Source: Ignavibacteria bacterium
GTDB taxonomy: Bacteria > Bacteroidota > Ignavibacteria > Ch128b
NCBI GenBank assembly: GCA_026415235.1
Contig: JAOAHM010000060.1
Span: 1 to 45,761, forward strand
Length of the DNA: 45,761 nt
Direction: 5' to 3'
Shown here in pieces: positions 22,368 to 41,719 of the stretch (position 1 is the first letter of the stretch; each line of letters starts with the position of its first letter). The notes below the pieces were generated by a model that was given only the letters and a program-made list of their open reading frames with translations, was not told where the DNA came from and did no database searches. A program made the translations under genes and the position numbers.

Positions 22368-24152
22368 TCACTCCACTTCTTTCAAAAATTTCAAAAACTC
22401 ATCAGCATTAACGAACGAAGTTATTCTCTTAACTTCATTTCCATTACTATCAAAAAGAATTACCGTCGGAACTCCTACGATTTCATACTTCTTCATTGCA
22501 AGTTGAGTTTCTTCACTTCCTGTCTTTGTTAAATCAACTTTGTATCTTCTAAATTTCTTTGTTTCTTCAATTACTCTTTTATCAGTAAATGTGAATTCAT
22601 CAAGTTCTTTGCAAGGCAAACACCAATCGGCATAAAAATCAACAATTACAGGTTGACCATTACCTAATTGAATTTGTTCAACTTTCACTTTTTCCCATTG
22701 AACTGATTCTTTTTCTTTCGGAATTAAGAGCCAAAGTCCAATTAATGCAATTAAAACTAATACAATATTTTTAATCAAAGAAAATGATTTGATTTGAGCT
22801 CCTGTTTTATCAAAAACAAGGAGATAAACTGAACTTAATATCATGAAGGATGGAAGAATATAACTTCTAAAATTCTCAGGAATTAATGGTAAGAGGAAAT
22901 AAATTGCCATTCCAAGCAAAACAAAACCAAAAATTTTCTTTACTGCTACCATCCATTCGCCACTTCTTGGTAATGACTTTATTTTTCCTGAAAACACAGC
23001 CAAAAACAGATAAGGTAATCCAAGACCGAGTGCAAGAACAAAGAAAATTAAAAAGCCAAATAATGGGTCACCTTTGGCACCAACAAAAGTCAAAAGTCCA
23101 ACAACAAAAGGTCCAATACATGGAGCTGCTACAACTCCCATTGTTAAGCCCATGAATAATGCACCTAAATAACCTGAACGTGCTTCACCAAATTTTGCCA
23201 TCCATGATGAAGGTAATTGAAACTCATATAATCCAAACATACTCAGAGAAAGAGCAACCAAAACCAAAGCTATACCAATCAACACAATTGGATTTTGAAG
23301 TAATGAACCAAATAATGCACCACTCAAAGCTGTAACAACTCCAATAACCGAATAAGTAATTGCCATACCAATTACATAAACAGATGCTAATCCAAAAAGC
23401 CTCGAAGTTTTACTCTCACTTTGTCCACCAAAATAACCTAAAGTGATTGGTATTAATGGATAAACGCAAGGAGTTAAATTGAGCGCAAGTCCTCCTAAGA
23501 AAACAAGTAAAAATGATAAAATTAAACTCTTTCCTTCGAAAAGTGAATCTGAAGTTGTTTTTGTTTCAACGGGTTTTTTCTCAAAAGCACTATAATTAAA
23601 ATTTGAGAACTCAACAACTTCATCTTCACTTTTAACGATTCCAACTTTTACCAAAATTTTTTCTTCTTTTGGAGGCAAGCAAGTTTGATTGTTGCAAGCT
23701 TGATAATTCATTACAACTTCAAATTCATAATCACCTTCACTTAAATTCTCTGGTACACGAATAACAATAGGGATTTCAAACTCACCTTCATAGACAGAAA
23801 CAGGTATATCTGAAAAATCGAATTTTATTTCTTTTGATTCTGGGAAATTTTTTTGAGAAATAAGAAATCCATCTTTTGAATTTATGGTCACATCAGTTGG
23901 AATCAGATAATCTTCCTTAGGTTTATTTGAATTGATGTGCCATTCAGGATTAATCTTAACTTTAAGTAATAAATAAAGATTATCACCACTTTTAATTTTT
24001 GAGTGACTTTGTCTTAGCTCAACCGTTAAAATTTTTTGTGAAGAATTATTTGTTTGGGCACTTCCACTTGATAATTGAAAATCGGAAATGGTTTGAGAAT
24101 AAACTAAAGTTGAAATTAAAAATGTTACGAGTAAAGAAATTATTTTTTTCAT
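22368..24152 (-). CDS. dsbD: Thiol:disulfide interchange protein DsbD
   Basis: A 594-residue inner-membrane protein that carries electrons from cytoplasmic thioredoxin to periplasmic thiols, needed for example for cytochrome c maturation. I start at the ATG at 24152, which overlaps the nadE stop as ATGA and has AGAGGTGG upstream, rather than the GTG two codons earlier. After a signal peptide (ending LVYSQ) come the N-terminal DsbD-alpha domain with C153 and C158 (NYQACNNQTC), a membrane domain with C229 (LNLTPCVYP) and C345 (VAAPCIGP), and a C-terminal thioredoxin domain with C511 and C514 (DWCLPC). All three cysteine pairs are present. It could support the Ccm system, which lacks ccmG and ccmH here. 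Confidence 0.95.
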   Translation of the reverse strand: MKKIISLLVTFLISTLVYSQTISDFQLSSGSAQTNNSSQKILTVELRQSHSKIKSGDNLYLLLKVKINPEWHINSNKPKEDYLIPTDVTINSKDGFLISQKNFPESKEIKFDFSDIPVSVYEGEFEIPIVIRVPENLSEGDYEFEVVMNYQACNNQTCLPPKEEKILVKVGIVKSEDEVVEFSNFNYSAFEKKPVETKTTSDSLFEGKSLILSFLLVFLGGLALNLTPCVYPLIPITLGYFGGQSESKTSRLFGLASVYVIGMAITYSVIGVVTALSGALFGSLLQNPIVLIGIALVLVALSLSMFGLYEFQLPSSWMAKFGEARSGYLGALFMGLTMGVVAAPCIGPFVVGLLTFVGAKGDPLFGFLIFFVLALGLGLPYLFLAVFSGKIKSLPRSGEWMVAVKKIFGFVLLGMAIYFLLPLIPENFRSYILPSFMILSSVYLLVFDKTGAQIKSFSLIKNIVLVLIALIGLWLLIPKEKESVQWEKVKVEQIQLGNGQPVIVDFYADWCLPCKELDEFTFTDKRVIEETKKFRRYKVDLTKTGSEETQLAMKKYEIVGVPTVILFDSNGNEVKRITSFVNADEFLKFLKEVE

Positions 24153-25783
24153 CTCCACCTCTGAACTATTGGGAATCTTCTTCCTGTTCCAAAAGCTTTG
24201 CTTGTAATTTTTAATCCAGGTGCAGCTTGTTTTCTTTTGTATTCCGCTCTATCCACCATTTTCAAAACATTTTGAACAAGTCCACGGTCAAAACCAAGTT
24301 CAACAATTTCATCAACTTCTTTTGCTTCTTCAATATAGTAGTAAAGAATTTTATCTAATACTTCGTATGGAGGTAATGTATCTTGATCAGTTTGATTTGG
24401 TTTTAACTCTGCAGATGGTACTTTATTTATTATCTCTACAGGAATTATTTCCTCCTTTCTATTAATAAACCGAGCGAGGTCATAAACTTTTGTTTTGTAA
24501 ACATCTGAGATTGGTGCAAGTCCACCACACATATCACCATAAAGTGTTGCATAACCTGTTGCAAGTTCTGATTTATTACCCGTTGCAAGTAATAAATAAC
24601 CAAACTTGTTCGAAAGAGCCATCAACAATACACCACGAATTCTTGATTGTAAATTTTCTTCAGTCACATCTTCAGGTAAGTTTTTAAATTCATTTGATAA
24701 ACTTTCTTTGAATTTATCAAACAAATCTTGAATTGGAATGATGGTGCCTTTCACTCTGATATTTTCAATAAGCTTTTGAGCATCTTTAATACTTCCTTCT
24801 GATGAATATTTCGAAGGCATCATCACACACAAAACATTATCAGCGCCTAATGCTTCTTTAGCTAAAACTGCCACCAAAGCCGAATCAATTCCACCGCTTA
24901 ATCCCAACACAACTTTTCGAAAACCAGTTTTATAACAATAATCTCTTATACCTAAAATCAATGCGTTATAAATGTCTTCGTCTTCATTAGGGAAAATATA
25001 ATTTGAAGCTTCATATTCTTTATCAGTATCAAAAAGAACTAAACTTTCTTCGAAACGATTAGATGCAATAATTAAATTGCCGTTGCTATCAAATACCTTC
25101 GAACCACCATCAAAAATCAAATCTGTATTTGCTCCAACTTGATTTACGAATAAAACTTTTCTTTTATGTTTTCTTGCAATAGAAGAAAACATCTCTGTTC
25201 TAATTTTTTCTTTTCCAATGCTAAATGGACTTGCAGATATGTTGATAATAATATCAGCACCAAGACCAACAACTTTTTCGATAGGATCAAATTCATATTT
25301 TCGATGAACCCAAAAATCTTTATCATTCCAAGCATCTTCACAAATTGTTATACCTAATTTTTTTCCGTGGAATTCAACAACATTAATTTCCTTTGATGGT
25401 TCAAAATATCTTACTTCATCAAAAACATCGTAGTTTGGTAATAATGATTTGTGATGAATGGATTTGATTTTACCATCATAACAGAAAATTGCAGAATTAA
25501 AAATGTTCGTTCCAATTTCATCTTCAATTTTCGTTACACTGCCAAAAATTATTCCAATACCTTTAGAAATGTCAACAATTTTTTTATGATAAGAAATCGC
25601 TTCGGTAACGAAAGAGTTTTTATCTAACAAATCAAGAGGTGGATAACCAAGAAGAGAAAGTTCAGGAAAAATAATTAAGTCAGCTTTCAGCTCTTTTGCT
25701 TTTTGAACATAACTAATAATCTTCTCGTAATTTCCCTTTAAATCACCTACTATCGGATTAATACTTGCTAAAACAATATTCAT
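24149..25783 (-). CDS. nadE: Glutamine-dependent NAD+ synthetase
   Basis: A 544-residue cytoplasmic enzyme making NAD+ from nicotinate adenine dinucleotide with glutamine as nitrogen source. The N-terminal nitrilase-type glutaminase domain has E41 (IIFPELSLLG), K112 (HHKSLLPNYD) and C148 (GITICEDAW). The C-terminal synthetase domain has the PP-loop LSGGIDSA (295-302) and GNKSELATGYATLYGD. The start MNIVLASINPIVGD matches the family N-terminus. There is no SD, and a promoter lies only four bases upstream of the ATG, so the transcript is probably leaderless or nearly so. It overlaps dsbD by ATGA. Confidence 0.96.
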   Translation of the reverse strand: MNIVLASINPIVGDLKGNYEKIISYVQKAKELKADLIIFPELSLLGYPPLDLLDKNSFVTEAISYHKKIVDISKGIGIIFGSVTKIEDEIGTNIFNSAIFCYDGKIKSIHHKSLLPNYDVFDEVRYFEPSKEINVVEFHGKKLGITICEDAWNDKDFWVHRKYEFDPIEKVVGLGADIIINISASPFSIGKEKIRTEMFSSIARKHKRKVLFVNQVGANTDLIFDGGSKVFDSNGNLIIASNRFEESLVLFDTDKEYEASNYIFPNEDEDIYNALILGIRDYCYKTGFRKVVLGLSGGIDSALVAVLAKEALGADNVLCVMMPSKYSSEGSIKDAQKLIENIRVKGTIIPIQDLFDKFKESLSNEFKNLPEDVTEENLQSRIRGVLLMALSNKFGYLLLATGNKSELATGYATLYGDMCGGLAPISDVYKTKVYDLARFINRKEEIIPVEIINKVPSAELKPNQTDQDTLPPYEVLDKILYYYIEEAKEVDEIVELGFDRGLVQNVLKMVDRAEYKRKQAAPGLKITSKAFGTGRRFPIVQRWR

Positions 25784-35031: not shown

Positions 35032-37425
35032 TCACACTTTAGATTCTTTTAATCTTCTTATCATTGCAATAAAGAAACCTACCACAATCACAACTGTTCC
35101 TAACCAAACCAATCCAACAAACGGTTTTATACTTGCAGTCACTGCTAAAATTTCTTTTCTTGTTAGATTTTCATTTCTTGTTTGATTGTATGGCTCAACC
35201 TGTAAAGTAATCATACCTTGATCAGCGCTCATTGATGCAAGACTAATTTGAAGATTTGCGTCTTTAATCTTTACTGTTTCGTTAAGTCGCTCACCATTTC
35301 GAATTCCATATTTTGGTTCTACTTCATATTTCGAACCATAACTTTTCACAACTATTTTTGCACCAATTTCAAAATCTCCACCTGACATCATTTTTTGCAT
35401 TGCATCTGCTGGCATATTGAAAGATAAAAATTCAATTTCCGCTTCACCTATTTTAACACTTTCACCTTTCTTGATTTGAACTGTTTGAGCTTGTGAATTC
35501 GAAGTCGTACCATCATCATAAGAAATTGGAGAGATATAAATGTCTTTTGTCAAGAATGGAACAATGTCTGGATTTCTCATTATTCCTTGATTGAAATCGC
35601 TATAGTACATTACAGGAGCAGCGGTATATTTTTTACCATTCTTCTCAATTAAAATTTTAAATTGATACTTTCCATCTTCAGTTGGTGAATAACCAGTAAA
35701 AACCATTTTATATCCAAATACTTCAGCAGGTTCACCTTTTACAAGATTTACATCAATTGATTTATCATATTTTGATGAAGCAATTACTCCAATGAATAAT
35801 AGTGCTAAACCCATGTGAGCGATATATGCACCAACCTTTTCAAAATTTCTTCTGAAAATTTTATATGCAATTTCAGCATTAACGAAAAATGCAAAAGCAG
35901 AGGCAAATGCAAACAAAACCATCTTCAAATCTTTCACTCCGACAAAATACATAATCACGGTAGTTATTACAGCAGCAGTAAGTGAGAAAATTGACTTTCG
36001 AAGCAATTCTTTTCCTTCCGATTCTTTCCATTTCACAAGTAAACTCAGACCATTAATTAATCCAATTAAAATACCAAGGGGCAAATTCATTTCGTTATAA
36101 AATTCGATTTGAACCGATTTACCAAGTATCGGAGCTGAAGTACCAAGAAAAGTTACAAGCGCAGATGCACCAAGCACAACCGAACCTGTGAACAATGCAA
36201 ATTCTCGTGAAAGTATATTATTATGGGGAGGTGTAATCTGTTGTAAATATTTCCAACGATAGATTAGAAGTCCTCCGCCTAAAACGATAAATGTTCCCAT
36301 AAAAATTAATAGCAATAAATAAGCAAAGTAGCCTGGGTCAACAAAGCTATGAACCGAAGCATCACCTAAAACTCCACTTCTTGTTAAAAATGTGGAATAG
36401 AGAACAAGAATAAATGAAAGTATGATTAAAACTAAATTAGTCTTAGCAAATGCACCTATACTATTCTCATTAGCAGTTTTTTTCTGAACTAACATTGTAT
36501 GCAAAGCAGCAACAGAAATAATCCAAGGAATGAGAGATGAATTTTCTACTGGATCCCAAGCCCAGTAACCACCCCAACCTAAGACTCCATAAGCCCAGTA
36601 GCCACCAAGCATAATTCCGAGTCCAAGAACCATCGCAGCGAATAATGTCCAAGGCAAAGATTGTTTAATCCATTCTTTGTAATCGTTTTTCATCAAAGCT
36701 GCAAAAGCAAATGAGAAGGGAACACTCATGGCAGCAAAACCGACAAACAAAATTGGTGGGTGTATCTGCATCCAGAAATTTTGCAAAAGTGGATTCAACC
36801 CCCTTCCGTTTATAATAAATTCATTCAAACTTATTCCTGCACTTTTCAATGCATCTACGAGGGATTGGTCAATTTTTACATAATGCATTCCTGTTGAATT
36901 GTCAGTAAAGAAATAATTTGCTAAGAATGGAAGATTAAAGAATTGCGAATTGATTGTATTCGCCGAAGCCATAAATGGTTCAGAATAAATCAAAGCAAAA
37001 GGATTCTTAACAAGCGGTGTAATCATTAAAAGCAAAAACGATTGCACTAATGAATAAACAGCCATCACTCTTGGTTCAAGGTCACCACGACTTGAAGCAT
37101 ATTGTTGAAGAATGATTCCAATTATCGCCATCCAAAGAGCCCATAGCAAAAAACTTCCTTCTTGTCCTGCATAAAAAGTTGAAATCAATAAACCAAGTGG
37201 AAGTGATGTATCACTATAACTATAAACATATTTGTATTGGAATTGATGAGTTAAAATCAAGTAAAGCAAAAAAATACTTGCAAGAATAGTCGAAGTTGCC
37301 ATTGTGTGGAACATTATTCTTGCGAAGTTAAGCGTATTCTGATAACCTTTATAATTTAAGAAATACAAAACACCTGAAGTCGCTGCTGCAATAAATGCAA
37401 TCGAAATTAAAATATTACCAATCAT
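35032..37425 (-). CDS. ccmF: Cytochrome c heme lyase subunit CcmF, enlarged
   Basis: A 797-residue polytopic inner-membrane protein that joins heme to apocytochrome c. The heme-handling WWD region is WGGYWAWDPVENSS (284-297), with H222 in IHPPILFVGF. It is longer than the roughly 650 residues usual for proteobacterial CcmF. Two places account for this: an insertion of about 60 residues (145-207, between NPFALI and GRGLNPLLQ) and a large periplasmic region near the C-terminus (about 555-760) before the last membrane segment (GLVWLGTVVIVVGFFIAM). SD GGGG/GGAT precedes the ATG. It follows ccmE by 15 bases and ends the operon. With no ccmH in the run, these extra regions might take over contacts with apocytochrome; that is speculation. 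Confidence 0.93.
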   Translation of the reverse strand: MIGNILISIAFIAAATSGVLYFLNYKGYQNTLNFARIMFHTMATSTILASIFLLYLILTHQFQYKYVYSYSDTSLPLGLLISTFYAGQEGSFLLWALWMAIIGIILQQYASSRGDLEPRVMAVYSLVQSFLLLMITPLVKNPFALIYSEPFMASANTINSQFFNLPFLANYFFTDNSTGMHYVKIDQSLVDALKSAGISLNEFIINGRGLNPLLQNFWMQIHPPILFVGFAAMSVPFSFAFAALMKNDYKEWIKQSLPWTLFAAMVLGLGIMLGGYWAYGVLGWGGYWAWDPVENSSLIPWIISVAALHTMLVQKKTANENSIGAFAKTNLVLIILSFILVLYSTFLTRSGVLGDASVHSFVDPGYFAYLLLLIFMGTFIVLGGGLLIYRWKYLQQITPPHNNILSREFALFTGSVVLGASALVTFLGTSAPILGKSVQIEFYNEMNLPLGILIGLINGLSLLVKWKESEGKELLRKSIFSLTAAVITTVIMYFVGVKDLKMVLFAFASAFAFFVNAEIAYKIFRRNFEKVGAYIAHMGLALLFIGVIASSKYDKSIDVNLVKGEPAEVFGYKMVFTGYSPTEDGKYQFKILIEKNGKKYTAAPVMYYSDFNQGIMRNPDIVPFLTKDIYISPISYDDGTTSNSQAQTVQIKKGESVKIGEAEIEFLSFNMPADAMQKMMSGGDFEIGAKIVVKSYGSKYEVEPKYGIRNGERLNETVKIKDANLQISLASMSADQGMITLQVEPYNQTRNENLTRKEILAVTASIKPFVGLVWLGTVVIVVGFFIAMIRRLKESKV

Positions 37426-37440
37426 CTTTTATCCCCTTTC

Positions 37441-37830
37441 TTATGATCCACTTGTATTTACATTTTGTCCTTCATATTTCGATGGACATTTGGTTAAGAC
37501 ATCAGTAGCGTGAAAAACTCCATTTTCAAATTTTCCAGTAACAACAACATTTGTAGCAATTTCAAAATTGTTTGGTTTAGTTCCACGATAAATAACTTTC
37601 ATTTCGTTATTGTTTGCATCTCTCAGGTAGAAAACAAAAGTTCTATTTTGAATATCTTCTTGAAATGATTTTTCTTTAACCCAAACACCAGTAGCTTTAC
37701 AGGTTTTTCCAGTCTGCATTACTTTAACAAAATCACTTTCGTATTCAATGTTAGTTCGTGTGAAATTGTAAAATAACAATCCAAGAAAAACTAAAATGAT
37801 TGTTCCACCGATATAATATCTTGCTTTCAT
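37441..37830 (-). CDS. ccmE: Cytochrome c maturation heme chaperone CcmE, Cys type
   Basis: A 129-residue periplasmic heme chaperone with one N-terminal membrane anchor (about 5-22) and an OB-fold domain (GKTCKATGVWV, FVFYLRDANNNEMKVIYRG, VVVTGKF). In classical CcmE heme is attached covalently to a histidine in HxxxY; here the site reads ATDVLTKCPSKY, with C115 in place of His and Y119 retained, i.e. CxxxY. Cys-type CcmE is known from archaea and Desulfovibrio-type bacteria, usually with a reduced Ccm set. A second cysteine, C44, lies in the N-terminal part. The ATG overlaps the ccmD stop as ATGA. Confidence 0.93.
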   Translation of the reverse strand: MKARYYIGGTIILVFLGLLFYNFTRTNIEYESDFVKVMQTGKTCKATGVWVKEKSFQEDIQNRTFVFYLRDANNNEMKVIYRGTKPNNFEIATNVVVTGKFENGVFHATDVLTKCPSKYEGQNVNTSGS

Positions 37831-37970
37831 TCTTTAATTGACTCCTCTAATTTTTTCACTTTTTTATCGAGTTTATACGCAAAAGAAAAAATTCCGATCC
37901 AAACCAATAAAACAATAATTAAAACAATGTAAAGAGAATTTTTTTCTAAGAAATTATAAAGTGTTTCCAC
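37827..37970 (-). CDS. ccmD: CcmD-like small membrane protein
   Basis: A 47-codon frame between ccmC and ccmE: GTG start at 37970 with SD AGGAGAG that overlaps the ccmC stop, and TGA overlapping the ccmE ATG. The product has an N-terminal METLYNFLEKNSLY, one membrane segment (IVLIIVLLVWIGIFSFAY) and a basic tail (KLDKKVKKLEES), exactly the build of CcmD, which stabilises the CcmABC heme-release complex and holo-CcmE. Position, size and topology all agree. Confidence 0.85.
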   Translation of the reverse strand: METLYNFLEKNSLYIVLIIVLLVWIGIFSFAYKLDKKVKKLEESIKE

Positions 37971-37979
37971 AGCTCTCTC

Positions 37980-38705
37980 CTAAATTTCTTTTTGAGAAAC
38001 ATGTTCAAGTTTTAATATTCGATGAGCTAAATTCCAGAACCAAAAAAACAAAATTGTAAAAGCAATAAGAGACAAAAAGAAAACAACTCTCATGTTAGCA
38101 GCCATTTCGAATTTAATAACTGGATTTGAACTTGCTCTAACTTGACCTGTTGCTGGATCAATTTCCAATGAACCAGGGTGAAGACCAATCATCAATCTTG
38201 GCATAATGAAAATGAAAAATGGTGTAGTTAAAAATGCAATAATTGAATAGATAGCTGAAAGTCTTGCTCGTTTTTCTTCACTATCAAGGGCAGACCTTAG
38301 AGCGAAATAAGCACCATAAATAAGTAGAAGAATAAAAATGCTTGTTTCTCTTGGATCCCAATGCCAGAAAGAACCCCAAGTAAATTTTGCCCAAACCGAA
38401 CCTGTGACTGTTGCAAGTATACAGAAAACAAATCCCAGTGCAGCTGCTGAAACTGATTTTATATCATCATACATATCTTTTCTTTTCAAATATCGAATTC
38501 CATAAAACATAGCGAGCAAATAAGCTAATACTGTCAACCATGCAGTAGGAACATGGAAAAATATTATTCGGGCTTTATCTTCTAAACCTGGAATTAAAGG
38601 AAACTCGAAAAAGCTTTTAGGATACTGGACAATTGGTGGAACAAAAGTGCCAATTATTACAATTGTCATTAAAACAAAAAGCAAAAATTTCCAAAAGTTT
38701 TTCAT
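37980..38705 (-). CDS. ccmC: Heme export/handling protein CcmC
   Basis: A 241-residue six-helix inner-membrane protein that loads heme onto CcmE. I start at the ATG at 38705 (MKNFWKFLLF), which has GGAG nine bases upstream; a longer frame from 38765 would overlap ccmB and has no SD. The WWD motif is VWAKFTWGSFWHWDPRETS (about 104-122), flanked by the axial heme ligands H51 (IIFFHVPTAW) and H176 (MIGLHPGSL). It follows ccmB by 47 bases and is 9 bases before ccmD. Confidence 0.95.
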   Translation of the reverse strand: MKNFWKFLLFVLMTIVIIGTFVPPIVQYPKSFFEFPLIPGLEDKARIIFFHVPTAWLTVLAYLLAMFYGIRYLKRKDMYDDIKSVSAAALGFVFCILATVTGSVWAKFTWGSFWHWDPRETSIFILLLIYGAYFALRSALDSEEKRARLSAIYSIIAFLTTPFFIFIMPRLMIGLHPGSLEIDPATGQVRASSNPVIKFEMAANMRVVFFLSLIAFTILFFWFWNLAHRILKLEHVSQKEI

Positions 38706-38752: not shown

Positions 38753-39415
38753 TTAATCTCTCCAAATAATATCAAATACCAAAATCGAGGCTGTAATCAT
38801 AACTACATCATAAGAAATCAAAACCAAAAGCTCTGCTTCAACATCTGAAATTGGATTTCCTTCCATTGCTGATTTAGTTATCTCAATTAACATTAAGATT
38901 AAAGGGAGAAGAACTGGAAAAGCAAGAACGGGATAAAGCGTCCCTTTCACATTTGCTTTTGAAATTATTGCTGCAATAATTGTAGAAGAAGCTGAAATAC
39001 CAAAATTTCCGAGAACATAAGCAAGTAAAAAACTATTCCAATTCTGAATCAAAAATTCCTGAAATAAAAACATATAGAGTAAAGCAATAACCGAGTTGAT
39101 GAAAAAAATTAATACAAGGTTAAATAAAAATTTACCAAGGAAAACCGTAACGGGATTTGCAATTAATGATAAAATTAATGTTGTTCCTCTTTCTTCTTCC
39201 GAAACAAATACACGAGATAAACCAGACATGGCTGAAAAGAAAACCACAACCCAAAACATTCCTGCATAAACATTTGGAGCTACACTTTCACTGCCAAGAG
39301 AAAATAGAATAGTACTAACTGCAACAACAACAAACATAATCAAAGCATTTAGTGCAAAACGCATTCTAAGTTCTGACGAAAAATCTTTGTAAAAAATGTA
39401 AAAAATCTTTTTCAT
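38753..39415 (-). CDS. ccmB: Heme ABC exporter permease CcmB
   Basis: A 220-residue six-helix permease that forms an ABC complex with CcmA (and CcmC, CcmD) to release holo-CcmE. Family features are the amphipathic N-terminus YKDFSSELRMRFALNAL, FVSEEERGTTLILSL and NPVTVFLGKFLFNL. Length is normal. The start overlaps the ccmA stop as ATGA. Confidence 0.93.
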   Translation of the reverse strand: MKKIFYIFYKDFSSELRMRFALNALIMFVVVAVSTILFSLGSESVAPNVYAGMFWVVVFFSAMSGLSRVFVSEEERGTTLILSLIANPVTVFLGKFLFNLVLIFFINSVIALLYMFLFQEFLIQNWNSFLLAYVLGNFGISASSTIIAAIISKANVKGTLYPVLAFPVLLPLILMLIEITKSAMEGNPISDVEAELLVLISYDVVMITASILVFDIIWRD

Positions 39416-40056
39416 TTGTTTTTGTTGTTTTTGTATTCGTCGAGATTTATAATTCTATTGCCATACTTAAAATCCTGTGACTCATTAGTAGCGATAATTA
39501 CAAATCCATCTTCTCTAAAATTTAAAATCAAATCCTCCACAAAATTTTTTCCTTCTATATCCAAATTCGAAGTCGGTTCATCAATTAATAAAATCAAAGG
39601 ATTGTGTAAAATGGCAGAAGCATATTTAATTCTTTGTTTCATTCCTGATGAATAAGTTCTAAGTAAATCATTTTTTCTTTCCAATAAACCGACACGAGTT
39701 AAGATTTTATTTATTTCATCATCACTAATTTTCAAGTTTCTAATCTTAGCGAACAACGAAAGATTTTCAAAAGCTGAAAATTCATCATATAAAACAAGAT
39801 ATGGCGAAACCAGTCCAATTATTTGATAAATATTTTCACGATCAATTTTTTTTTGATTTAAAATATATTCTACTGAACCCGAAGATTCAGTCAAAACTCC
39901 AGCCAAAATTTTTAACAAAGTTGATTTTCCAGAACCATTCTTGCCAGTTATTACAAGTCGTTCACCTGACTTAACTTCGAAGTTCAGTTTATCGAAGACT
40001 AATCTTCGATTAAAATTTTTCTTTAGCTCTCTAACTCTTAAAATAATTTCATTCAT
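39412..40056 (-). CDS. ccmA: Heme ABC exporter ATPase CcmA
   Basis: A 214-residue ABC ATPase powering release of heme-loaded CcmE. Walker A GKNGSGKST (38-46), signature YSSGMKQRIKYASA, Walker B LILLIDEPTSNLD and the switch IIATNES (His replaced by Asn) are visible. The Ccm assignment rests mainly on its position before ccmB. The start overlaps the end of the MXAN_6640-like gene by eight bases. Confidence 0.93.
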   Translation of the reverse strand: MNEIILRVRELKKNFNRRLVFDKLNFEVKSGERLVITGKNGSGKSTLLKILAGVLTESSGSVEYILNQKKIDRENIYQIIGLVSPYLVLYDEFSAFENLSLFAKIRNLKISDDEINKILTRVGLLERKNDLLRTYSSGMKQRIKYASAILHNPLILLIDEPTSNLDIEGKNFVEDLILNFREDGFVIIATNESQDFKYGNRIINLDEYKNNKNK

Positions 40057-41719
40057 TTACGATAACGATCTTTCCAGTTGATTTTTTATCACCGTTAATC
40101 AAAGTGTAAAAATAAATTCCTGAAGAAACTTTTTTGTTCAACTCATCTTTGCCGTTCCATCTAACCACTATTTTGTCTTCAAAAATCTGTGGAATTTCTT
40201 TTGAAGCAAAAATGAGTTTCATACTTGTTGAATAAATCAAAAGTTGAACCTCTCCAAGCCAATCACTCGGAACAGGAATATTCAAATAACTATGCTTGTT
40301 CAAATTCGCTGGCATTGGAAAGGCAAGCTGAGTTGTGTTCATAAAAATCTGTGAAGCCGTAGAGTCATTAATAATGTAGTATTCACTCCAGTTGTTAATG
40401 TCATTAACTTCAAGCTTTGAAAAAATATTGGAAGAAATTTTTTTGTAGGATGGATCATTTTGATTATTCATTAACTTTATGACATAATTGAATGGTCTCG
40501 AATAACTTGACCAGTTCAAAGCTGAATCAATATTCGCATTTACTAAAATAATCACAATCGAGTCTGGTTGTAATGGAACTCTTGAAATTGAGTCAATTAC
40601 TAAAAAATAATTTGCTGCACAAGGTTGACTACTTCCACTTATCGTTCTTGATGGTTGAATGAATTGAATTGGATAGTTGAAACGAACCAAAGGATAATTT
40701 TTTCCTTCTTCATAATATTTATCTGGTTTAGAACGATATCCTGTATAATAATTATAAACATAAAATTGTGAGAAAACAGATTTGAAAATTCTTCCTCTTT
40801 CTTCAATAGATTTTTTTATAGCTTCTAAAGCAGAATGATTTTTAACTAACTCCCACTGTCTTACAAAAATTGAAAAGTCGTAATTAAAAATTTTGTGAAG
40901 ATAGATATTCCAAATTGCTTGAGAGTAACCATCAAAACTTGTAAATATTTTATCTGGTCGATTAAAAAAAGTTGGAATATAAGCGTAGTAATCATTAATC
41001 GTATCGAACACAAATTCTTCCATCGAAGTAGATGTTAATTCATAAAACCACACATCTCCTTCGGAATAACGATAATTTCCAATTTGAATTGCATGATGAT
41101 ATTCGTGAGCAACAGTTACTCTTGCTGCATCTATTCCCTTTGTGTAATAATCATTTTCATGAAAGCTATCATCAATTACCATAAATGATGAATAACGATT
41201 AGAACCGATAACATCTTCAAATTCTGTATAACCATAAACAGGGCTAATATTGTGTACATATACATCATATCTATCGTCACCACCATTTCCCAAATCATTT
41301 GGTGCAGGAGGAAAACCCATAACGAAAACTTCAAAATAATAGACTGAGTCTAAGGCTCTTGCTAATTCATGAATTGAATACTTTATTGAATTTGCACCTG
41401 TAGTATCATAGTGAATTTTAAATTTCCCACTTGGTGTGATATAAGTTGCTTGCTTAGTTGGGCGTTGTAATACCGATTTAATTTTTTGTTGTTTATCGAG
41501 CGAATAATTTTCAAAATTCATTTTTATGGAATTGACTAAATGAAAACCACATTTTTTATCTTTGATAAAAGAATTGTATTCGTCGCTCAATAATCCTTTA
41601 ATCCTCAAAAAAGCAATATAATTTGAATCACTTCCAATTTGTGAATTAAGCTGAAATTGTTGAGCTACCAAATCAATTGAGAAAAATATTACTAATAGGA
41701 CAATCAATTTTAATTTCAT
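40049..41719 (-). CDS. MXAN_6640-like metalloprotease with T9SS sorting domain
   Basis: A 556-residue secreted protein. Signal peptide about 1-19 (ending DLVA). The zinc site is HEYHH (205-209, the HExxH pattern) in RVTVAHEYHHAIQ, followed by WFYELTSTSMEEFVFD, whose glutamates could give the third ligand. This matches the MXAN_6640-type putative metalloproteases. After about residue 480 comes a type IX secretion C-terminal sorting domain (GEVQLLIYSTSMKL, WNGKDELNKKVSSGIYFY, STGKIVIV). It should cross the outer membrane by the T9SS. Coupled to the upstream FG-GAP-like gene (ATGA) and to ccmA downstream (eight-base overlap). Confidence 0.88.
   Translation of the reverse strand: MKLKLIVLLVIFFSIDLVAQQFQLNSQIGSDSNYIAFLRIKGLLSDEYNSFIKDKKCGFHLVNSIKMNFENYSLDKQQKIKSVLQRPTKQATYITPSGKFKIHYDTTGANSIKYSIHELARALDSVYYFEVFVMGFPPAPNDLGNGGDDRYDVYVHNISPVYGYTEFEDVIGSNRYSSFMVIDDSFHENDYYTKGIDAARVTVAHEYHHAIQIGNYRYSEGDVWFYELTSTSMEEFVFDTINDYYAYIPTFFNRPDKIFTSFDGYSQAIWNIYLHKIFNYDFSIFVRQWELVKNHSALEAIKKSIEERGRIFKSVFSQFYVYNYYTGYRSKPDKYYEEGKNYPLVRFNYPIQFIQPSRTISGSSQPCAANYFLVIDSISRVPLQPDSIVIILVNANIDSALNWSSYSRPFNYVIKLMNNQNDPSYKKISSNIFSKLEVNDINNWSEYYIINDSTASQIFMNTTQLAFPMPANLNKHSYLNIPVPSDWLGEVQLLIYSTSMKLIFASKEIPQIFEDKIVVRWNGKDELNKKVSSGIYFYTLINGDKKSTGKIVIVNE

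What the first reader, a model, noticed from the sequence alone, without database searches (positions are those of the whole stretch)
37441..37830. CcmE with a Cys heme-attachment site (CxxxY) in an Ignavibacteria-like genome
The conserved HxxxY is replaced by C115-x-x-x-Y119. From established work, Cys-type CcmE occurs in archaea and sulfate-reducing Deltaproteobacteria with a reduced system I. Here ccmABCDEF form one run and neither ccmG nor ccmH/ccmI is present, so apocytochrome reduction and delivery must come from elsewhere; the DsbD in this window is one possible electron source. Whether this variant is general in Ignavibacteria is worth establishing.
Basis: partly seen in the sequence, partly recalled or inferred. 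Interest (0 to 1): 0.6.

Follow-up and report, generated by a model that had tools for sequence, protein, structure and literature searches.

The report
Ordinary cysteine-type CcmE heme chaperone
This Ignavibacteria genome carries a working-looking set of genes for attaching heme to cytochromes c whose heme carrier uses a cysteine instead of a histidine; the variant is already known as System I*, and it turns out to be the rule, not an exception, throughout this bacterial class and in every member of its phylum sampled.

Summary
CcmE lies on the minus strand (37830-37441, 129 aa) and carries C115-P-S-K-Y119 where E. coli has HxxxY. The operon is ccmABCDEF without ccmG, ccmH or ccmI.

It is a standard member of a described variant, System I* (Allen 2006; Goddard 2010; Stevens 2011, whose commonest motif is this same CPSKY). 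In a 149-genome class sample, 143 have CcmE and all 145 genes are CPSKY or CPSRY; none is His-type. All 42 CcmE genes read from 24 other families of the phylum are also CPSKY.

The home genome (89% complete) shows no second CcmE with a heme tail, no CcmH or CcmI by profile search, and no System II ResB. It does encode cytochromes c with up to 13 hemes and a CxxCK-type NrfA, so the reduced system must work. Reductant probably comes from the intact DsbD plus TlpA/ResA-type thioredoxins (inferred).

Three things seen on the way are newer than the finding: a CcmE paralogue without the heme-binding tail, in 46 of 149 class genomes (this one included) and between ccmE and ccmF in 17; zinc-ribbon proteins with a CcmH-like domain in some relatives; and a conserved MXAN_6640-type metalloprotease gene overlapping ccmA.

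The parts
37441..37830 (-). ccmE, Cys-type heme chaperone, 129 aa; N-terminal TM helix plus OB fold; motif CPSKY at 37488-37474 (C115, Y119)
   Evidence: PF03100 E 1.2e-17; PDB alignment to 2KCT and 1SR3; AlphaFold pLDDT 86.5, helix 2-25 then beta barrel; best Foldseek hits are CcmE 8CE8, 1LM0, 1J6Q, 1SR3
37827..37970 (-). ccmD, 47 aa, GTG start; its stop overlaps the ccmE start (ATGA)
   Evidence: TIGR04391 27.5 bits, cut-off 24; PF20077 just below cut-off; sequence
37980..38705 (-). ccmC, WWD-domain heme-handling protein; ATG start inferred at 38705 (the mechanical ORF opens upstream with TTG); WGSFWHWDPRETS motif and both periplasmic His (FFHVP, LHPGS) present
   Evidence: PF01578; aligns to E. 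coli CcmC 7F02 E 2.5e-14
38753..39415 (-). ccmB, heme exporter permease
   Evidence: PF03379 E 3.2e-14
39412..40056 (-). ccmA, ABC ATPase
   Evidence: PF00005; TIGR01189 ccmA 115 bits, cut-off 131.6; operon position
35032..37425 (-). ccmF, 797 aa heme lyase; WGGYWAWDPVENSS, periplasmic His (IHPPI, VHSF) present
   Evidence: PF01578 plus PF16327; aligns to Thermus CcmF 6ZMQ E 5e-60
40049..41719 (-). MXAN_6640-family HExxH metalloprotease-like gene overlapping the ccmA start; conserved neighbour, role unknown
   Evidence: NF045524 167.6 bits, cut-off 140; directly upstream of ccmA in 34/42 class loci and 39/41 named loci
22368..24158 (-). DsbD with all three Cys pairs (QACNNQTC; TPCVYP/APCIGP; DWCLPC): candidate electron source
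   Evidence: PF02683, PF11412, PF13098; NF001419 351.8 bits, cut-off 330; sequence

Best explanation
This is a System I* cytochrome c maturation operon (ccmABCDEF). CcmABCD moves heme across the inner membrane and loads it on C115 of the periplasmic OB-fold chaperone CcmE, with Y119 as likely iron ligand. CcmE hands heme to CcmF, which attaches it to CxxCH of apocytochromes without CcmH or CcmI. Apocytochrome cysteines are kept reduced by DsbD and one or more membrane-anchored TlpA/ResA-like thioredoxins. Shown here: the gene set, motifs, fold, absence calls, universality in the class, and presence of cytochrome c substrates. Inferred from D. desulfuricans and M. acetivorans work: heme on Cys, transfer by CcmF. 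Inferred without direct test: the source of reductant.
For: Motif and operon; Cys aligns with D. vulgaris CcmE; fold. One CcmE with a heme tail, no CcmH, CcmI or ResB detected in the genome. 145/145 class CcmE are CPSKY/CPSRY; 42/42 in 24 other families of the phylum; 80/80 named loci, though that search was seeded on the motif. CcmH above Pfam cut-off in 4 of 149 class and 2 of 297 phylum genomes, and the class ones read are zinc-ribbon or otherwise variant proteins with Cys-rich CcmH-like domains. Substrates: ACIII/oxidase cytochromes, 13- and 9-heme proteins, NrfH and NrfA with CWTCK in the 31% of the genome read. Melioribacter roseus, same class, makes functional cytochrome c551/552 and detectable CcmF (PMC5492636). 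System I* and CPSKY described in PMC3601427; the M. acetivorans Cys is required for heme binding (PMC9084895).
Against: The genome is 88.8% complete in 97 contigs, so a missing gene could be in a gap; near-complete relatives agree, however. For D. vulgaris CcmE, ferric heme was reported to bind non-covalently through this Cys in vitro (PMC3884852), so a covalent thioether is not certain. No experiment exists on this protein.
Confidence: 0.93

Rival explanations
1. C115 holds heme only as an axial thiolate ligand, non-covalently, and the chaperone works by coordination rather than by a covalent intermediate.
For: Reported in vitro for D. vulgaris CcmE (cited in PMC3884852).
Against: D. desulfuricans CcmE binds heme covalently when its operon is expressed in E. 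coli (PMC3601427), and M. acetivorans C120 is needed for heme-stainable CcmE (PMC9084895).
Confidence: 0.15
2. CcmH is not lost but replaced: a diverged, Cys-rich CcmH-like domain protein (zinc ribbon, TM helix, one or two CcmH-like domains) does its job.
For: Such proteins occur in about ten class genomes, with F.C.CG.C...C.C motifs and the CcmH-like helix pattern.
Against: Not found in the own genome by PF03918 nor by a custom profile in the 31% of it that was read; absent by PF03918 from most class genomes, although that profile scores them only 20-30 bits.
Confidence: 0.08
3. The operon is a decaying or horizontally acquired remnant and is not used.
For: Some classical components are missing.
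Against: All key residues intact, ORFs overlap, conserved operon in the whole class, many cytochrome c genes and no System II ResB.
Confidence: 0.01

Closest known systems
System I* of Desulfovibrio (Allen 2006; Goddard 2010; reviewed in PMC3601427)
   Same: CcmE with the CxxxY motif (most often CPSKY), no CcmH or CcmG in the operon, ccmD kept, CcmABCF present
   Different: In the Desulfovibrio system CcmI raises yield; no CcmI found here. A fixed upstream MXAN_6640-family gene is a feature of this class.
Archaeal CcmABCEF of Methanosarcina acetivorans (PMC9084895)
   Same: Cys-type CcmE, no CcmH or CcmI
   Different: Archaeal set lacks CcmD and splits CcmF in two; here ccmD is present and CcmF is a single 797-aa protein
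E. coli System I (CcmABCDEFGH)
   Same: Same core proteins and WWD/His motifs in CcmC and CcmF; CcmE OB fold
   Different: HxxxY in CcmE; CcmG and CcmH needed in E. coli, not found here

Membership tests
CcmE (PF03100) | Profile match over the curated cut-off | tested here: met
   64.5 bits against 24.6
CcmE (PF03100) | N-terminal membrane anchor and OB fold | tested here: met
   AlphaFold helix 2-25 and beta barrel; top Foldseek hits are CcmE structures
[quoted passage not shown]
   C115-PSK-Y119; aligned to 2KCT
System I* | ccmABC(D)EF present | tested here: met
System I* | CcmH absent in many but not all cases (not strictly defining) | tested here: met
   No PF03918 match in own genome; genome 88.8% complete
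System I* | Heme bound through the Cys of CcmE | not testable with these tools
   Needs heme stain or mass spectrometry
E. coli-type System I | HxxxY in CcmE | tested here: not met
   Cys instead of His
System II (CcsBA/ResBC) | ResB (PF05140) present | tested here: not met
   No match in own genome; control genomes ring

The most novel reading that the evidence does not exclude
In Ignavibacteria the reduced System I* has gained class-specific helper proteins in place of CcmG/H/I: a CcmE paralogue that ends just before the heme-binding tail and carries a conserved GH-x-H...FH pattern (between ccmE and ccmF in three families, elsewhere in the genome in this one), possibly with the conserved MXAN_6640-type protease and, in some genomes, the zinc-ribbon CcmH-like protein. 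Together they would form a new apocytochrome- or heme-handling module.
Probability: 0.25. Interest if true: 0.5.

Novelty: new member of a known kind. Interest (0 to 1): 0.17.

Why it matters
It shows that Cys-type heme chaperoning is the normal form in an entire large bacterial class and in every sampled member of its phylum that has CcmE, not a curiosity of archaea and sulfate reducers. This genome makes cytochromes with up to 13 hemes and a CxxCK-containing NrfA with no detected CcmH or CcmI, so how the apocytochrome is delivered is a natural question to test in this class.

Tried and rejected
A second His-type CcmE: searched, none; the second CcmE-domain protein lacks the tail. CcmH candidates in relatives: read one by one; they are zinc-ribbon or variant CcmH-like proteins, or a chance match (G206, histidine-kinase-like). 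My first reading of the minus-strand CcmH hits used the wrong strand and was redone. CcmG: no DsbE equivalog over cut-off, only TlpA/ResA-like thioredoxins. System II: none. The Goddard 2010 and Aramini 2012 papers are not held; they are cited through reviews. The named-loci search used the pattern LTKCPSKY, so its 80/80 count is biased and carries no weight on frequency.

Full report
What is there. The ORF lies on the minus strand, window 37830-37441, 129 aa. It matches Pfam CcmE well above the cut-off. The heme-binding position reads V-L-T-K-C115-P-S-K-Y119-E-G. In the alignments to solved structures, C115 falls on the Cys of Desulfovibrio vulgaris CcmE (2KCT) and on the heme-binding His of E. 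coli CcmE. The AlphaFold model from 39 related sequences (mean pLDDT 86.5) shows a membrane helix and a beta barrel with a low-confidence tail after the motif, and its best structural matches are CcmE proteins.

Surroundings. The genes run ccmA-B-C-D-E-F on the minus strand, mostly overlapping or nearly so. ccmD is a 47-aa ORF with a GTG start. CcmC and CcmF keep the WWD motif and the periplasmic histidines seen in 7F02 and 6ZMQ (residues read from the sequence). A MXAN_6640-family metalloprotease-like gene overlaps the start of ccmA. DsbD, about 11 kb from the end of ccmF, has all three cysteine pairs.

The genome (2.14 Mb, 97 contigs, 88.8% complete) has one PF03100 match, no CcmH, no CcmI, no ResB. 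For CcmG, seven thioredoxin-like matches fall below the DsbE cut-off; three read in full are TlpA/ResA-like, one with a membrane anchor. In the 31% of the genome read directly there are proteins with 13, 9, 6 and 4 CxxCH motifs, NrfH, and NrfA with CWTCK, besides the ACIII/oxidase cytochromes. So the reduced machinery has real and demanding substrates.

Is it general? In 149 genomes of the class, 143 have CcmE; four of the six without are under 90% complete. I extracted every gene: 145 CcmE, of which 133 carry CPSKY and 12 CPSRY, none a His. In a phylum sample 193 of 297 genomes have CcmE; 42 genes outside the class, from 24 families, were read and all are CPSKY. CcmH passes its cut-off in 4/149 class and 2/297 phylum genomes.

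What is known. System I* with Cys-type CcmE is described for archaea, Desulfovibrio and, by 2011, other delta-proteobacteria, Chloroflexi and Firmicutes, with CPSKY in 25 of 36 genomes and CcmH kept in about a third (PMC3601427). In M. acetivorans the Cys is needed for heme on CcmE and CcmABCEF suffices (PMC9084895). Melioribacter roseus, a relative, expresses CcmF and a cytochrome c551/552 in its aerobic chain (PMC5492636). I found no paper in the library that states the distribution in Ignavibacteria or Bacteroidota; the library is partial.

Mechanism. Most likely the known System I* route: CcmABCD loads heme on C115, CcmF transfers it to CxxCH. The reductant is not settled; DsbD plus a TlpA/ResA-type protein is the simplest reading, inferred only. 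Whether the heme-Cys bond is covalent differs between two published Desulfovibrio proteins.

Things beyond the finding. A tail-less CcmE paralogue exists in 46 of the 149 class genomes (my count after removing hits on CcmE itself), including this one (G000:C46, 115 aa) and all six sampled members of its family. In 17 genomes of three families it sits by ccmE, between ccmE and ccmF where the locus reaches ccmF. It aligns with CcmE along its whole length up to the last strand (hhalign probability 99.4%) and stops just before the CPSKY tail, with GH and FH conserved. In the phylum sample the listed hits outside the class that I compared coincide with CcmE itself. Some relatives have zinc-ribbon proteins with CcmH-like domains. 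These are better leads than the Cys motif.

Noticed in passing
L324:2416-2763 (G000:C46, minus strand); also L063:4315-4683, L099:4307-4678, L162:1888-2238: CcmE paralogue that ends before the heme-binding tail, with conserved GH-x-H and FHA; 46/149 class genomes, next to ccmE (between ccmE and ccmF) in 17; not seen outside the class in the phylum sample.
   Followed up: partly
window 40049-41719, minus strand: MXAN_6640-family HExxH metalloprotease-like gene overlapping ccmA; directly upstream of ccmA in 34/42 class loci and 39/41 named loci with enough sequence. No paper found on it.
   Followed up: partly
L032, L033-L038, L328, L329, L331 (and L031 without zinc ribbon): Zinc-ribbon plus TM plus one or two Cys-rich CcmH-like domains (F.C.CG.C...C.C); weak PF03918 hits; possible CcmH relatives in about ten class genomes.
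   Followed up: partly
L358 (G000:C86), minus strand: NrfH and NrfA with CWTCK in a genome without detected CcmH or CcmI homologues; how heme reaches the CxxCK site is open. NrfE was not searched for separately.
   Followed up: partly
L135 (G138:C2:96163-96426): One ccmE with an in-frame TAG, in a 78% complete genome; may be an assembly error.
   Followed up: no
G062 (L077, L110) and G115 (L095, L109): Two class genomes carry two Cys-type CcmE genes each.
   Followed up: no
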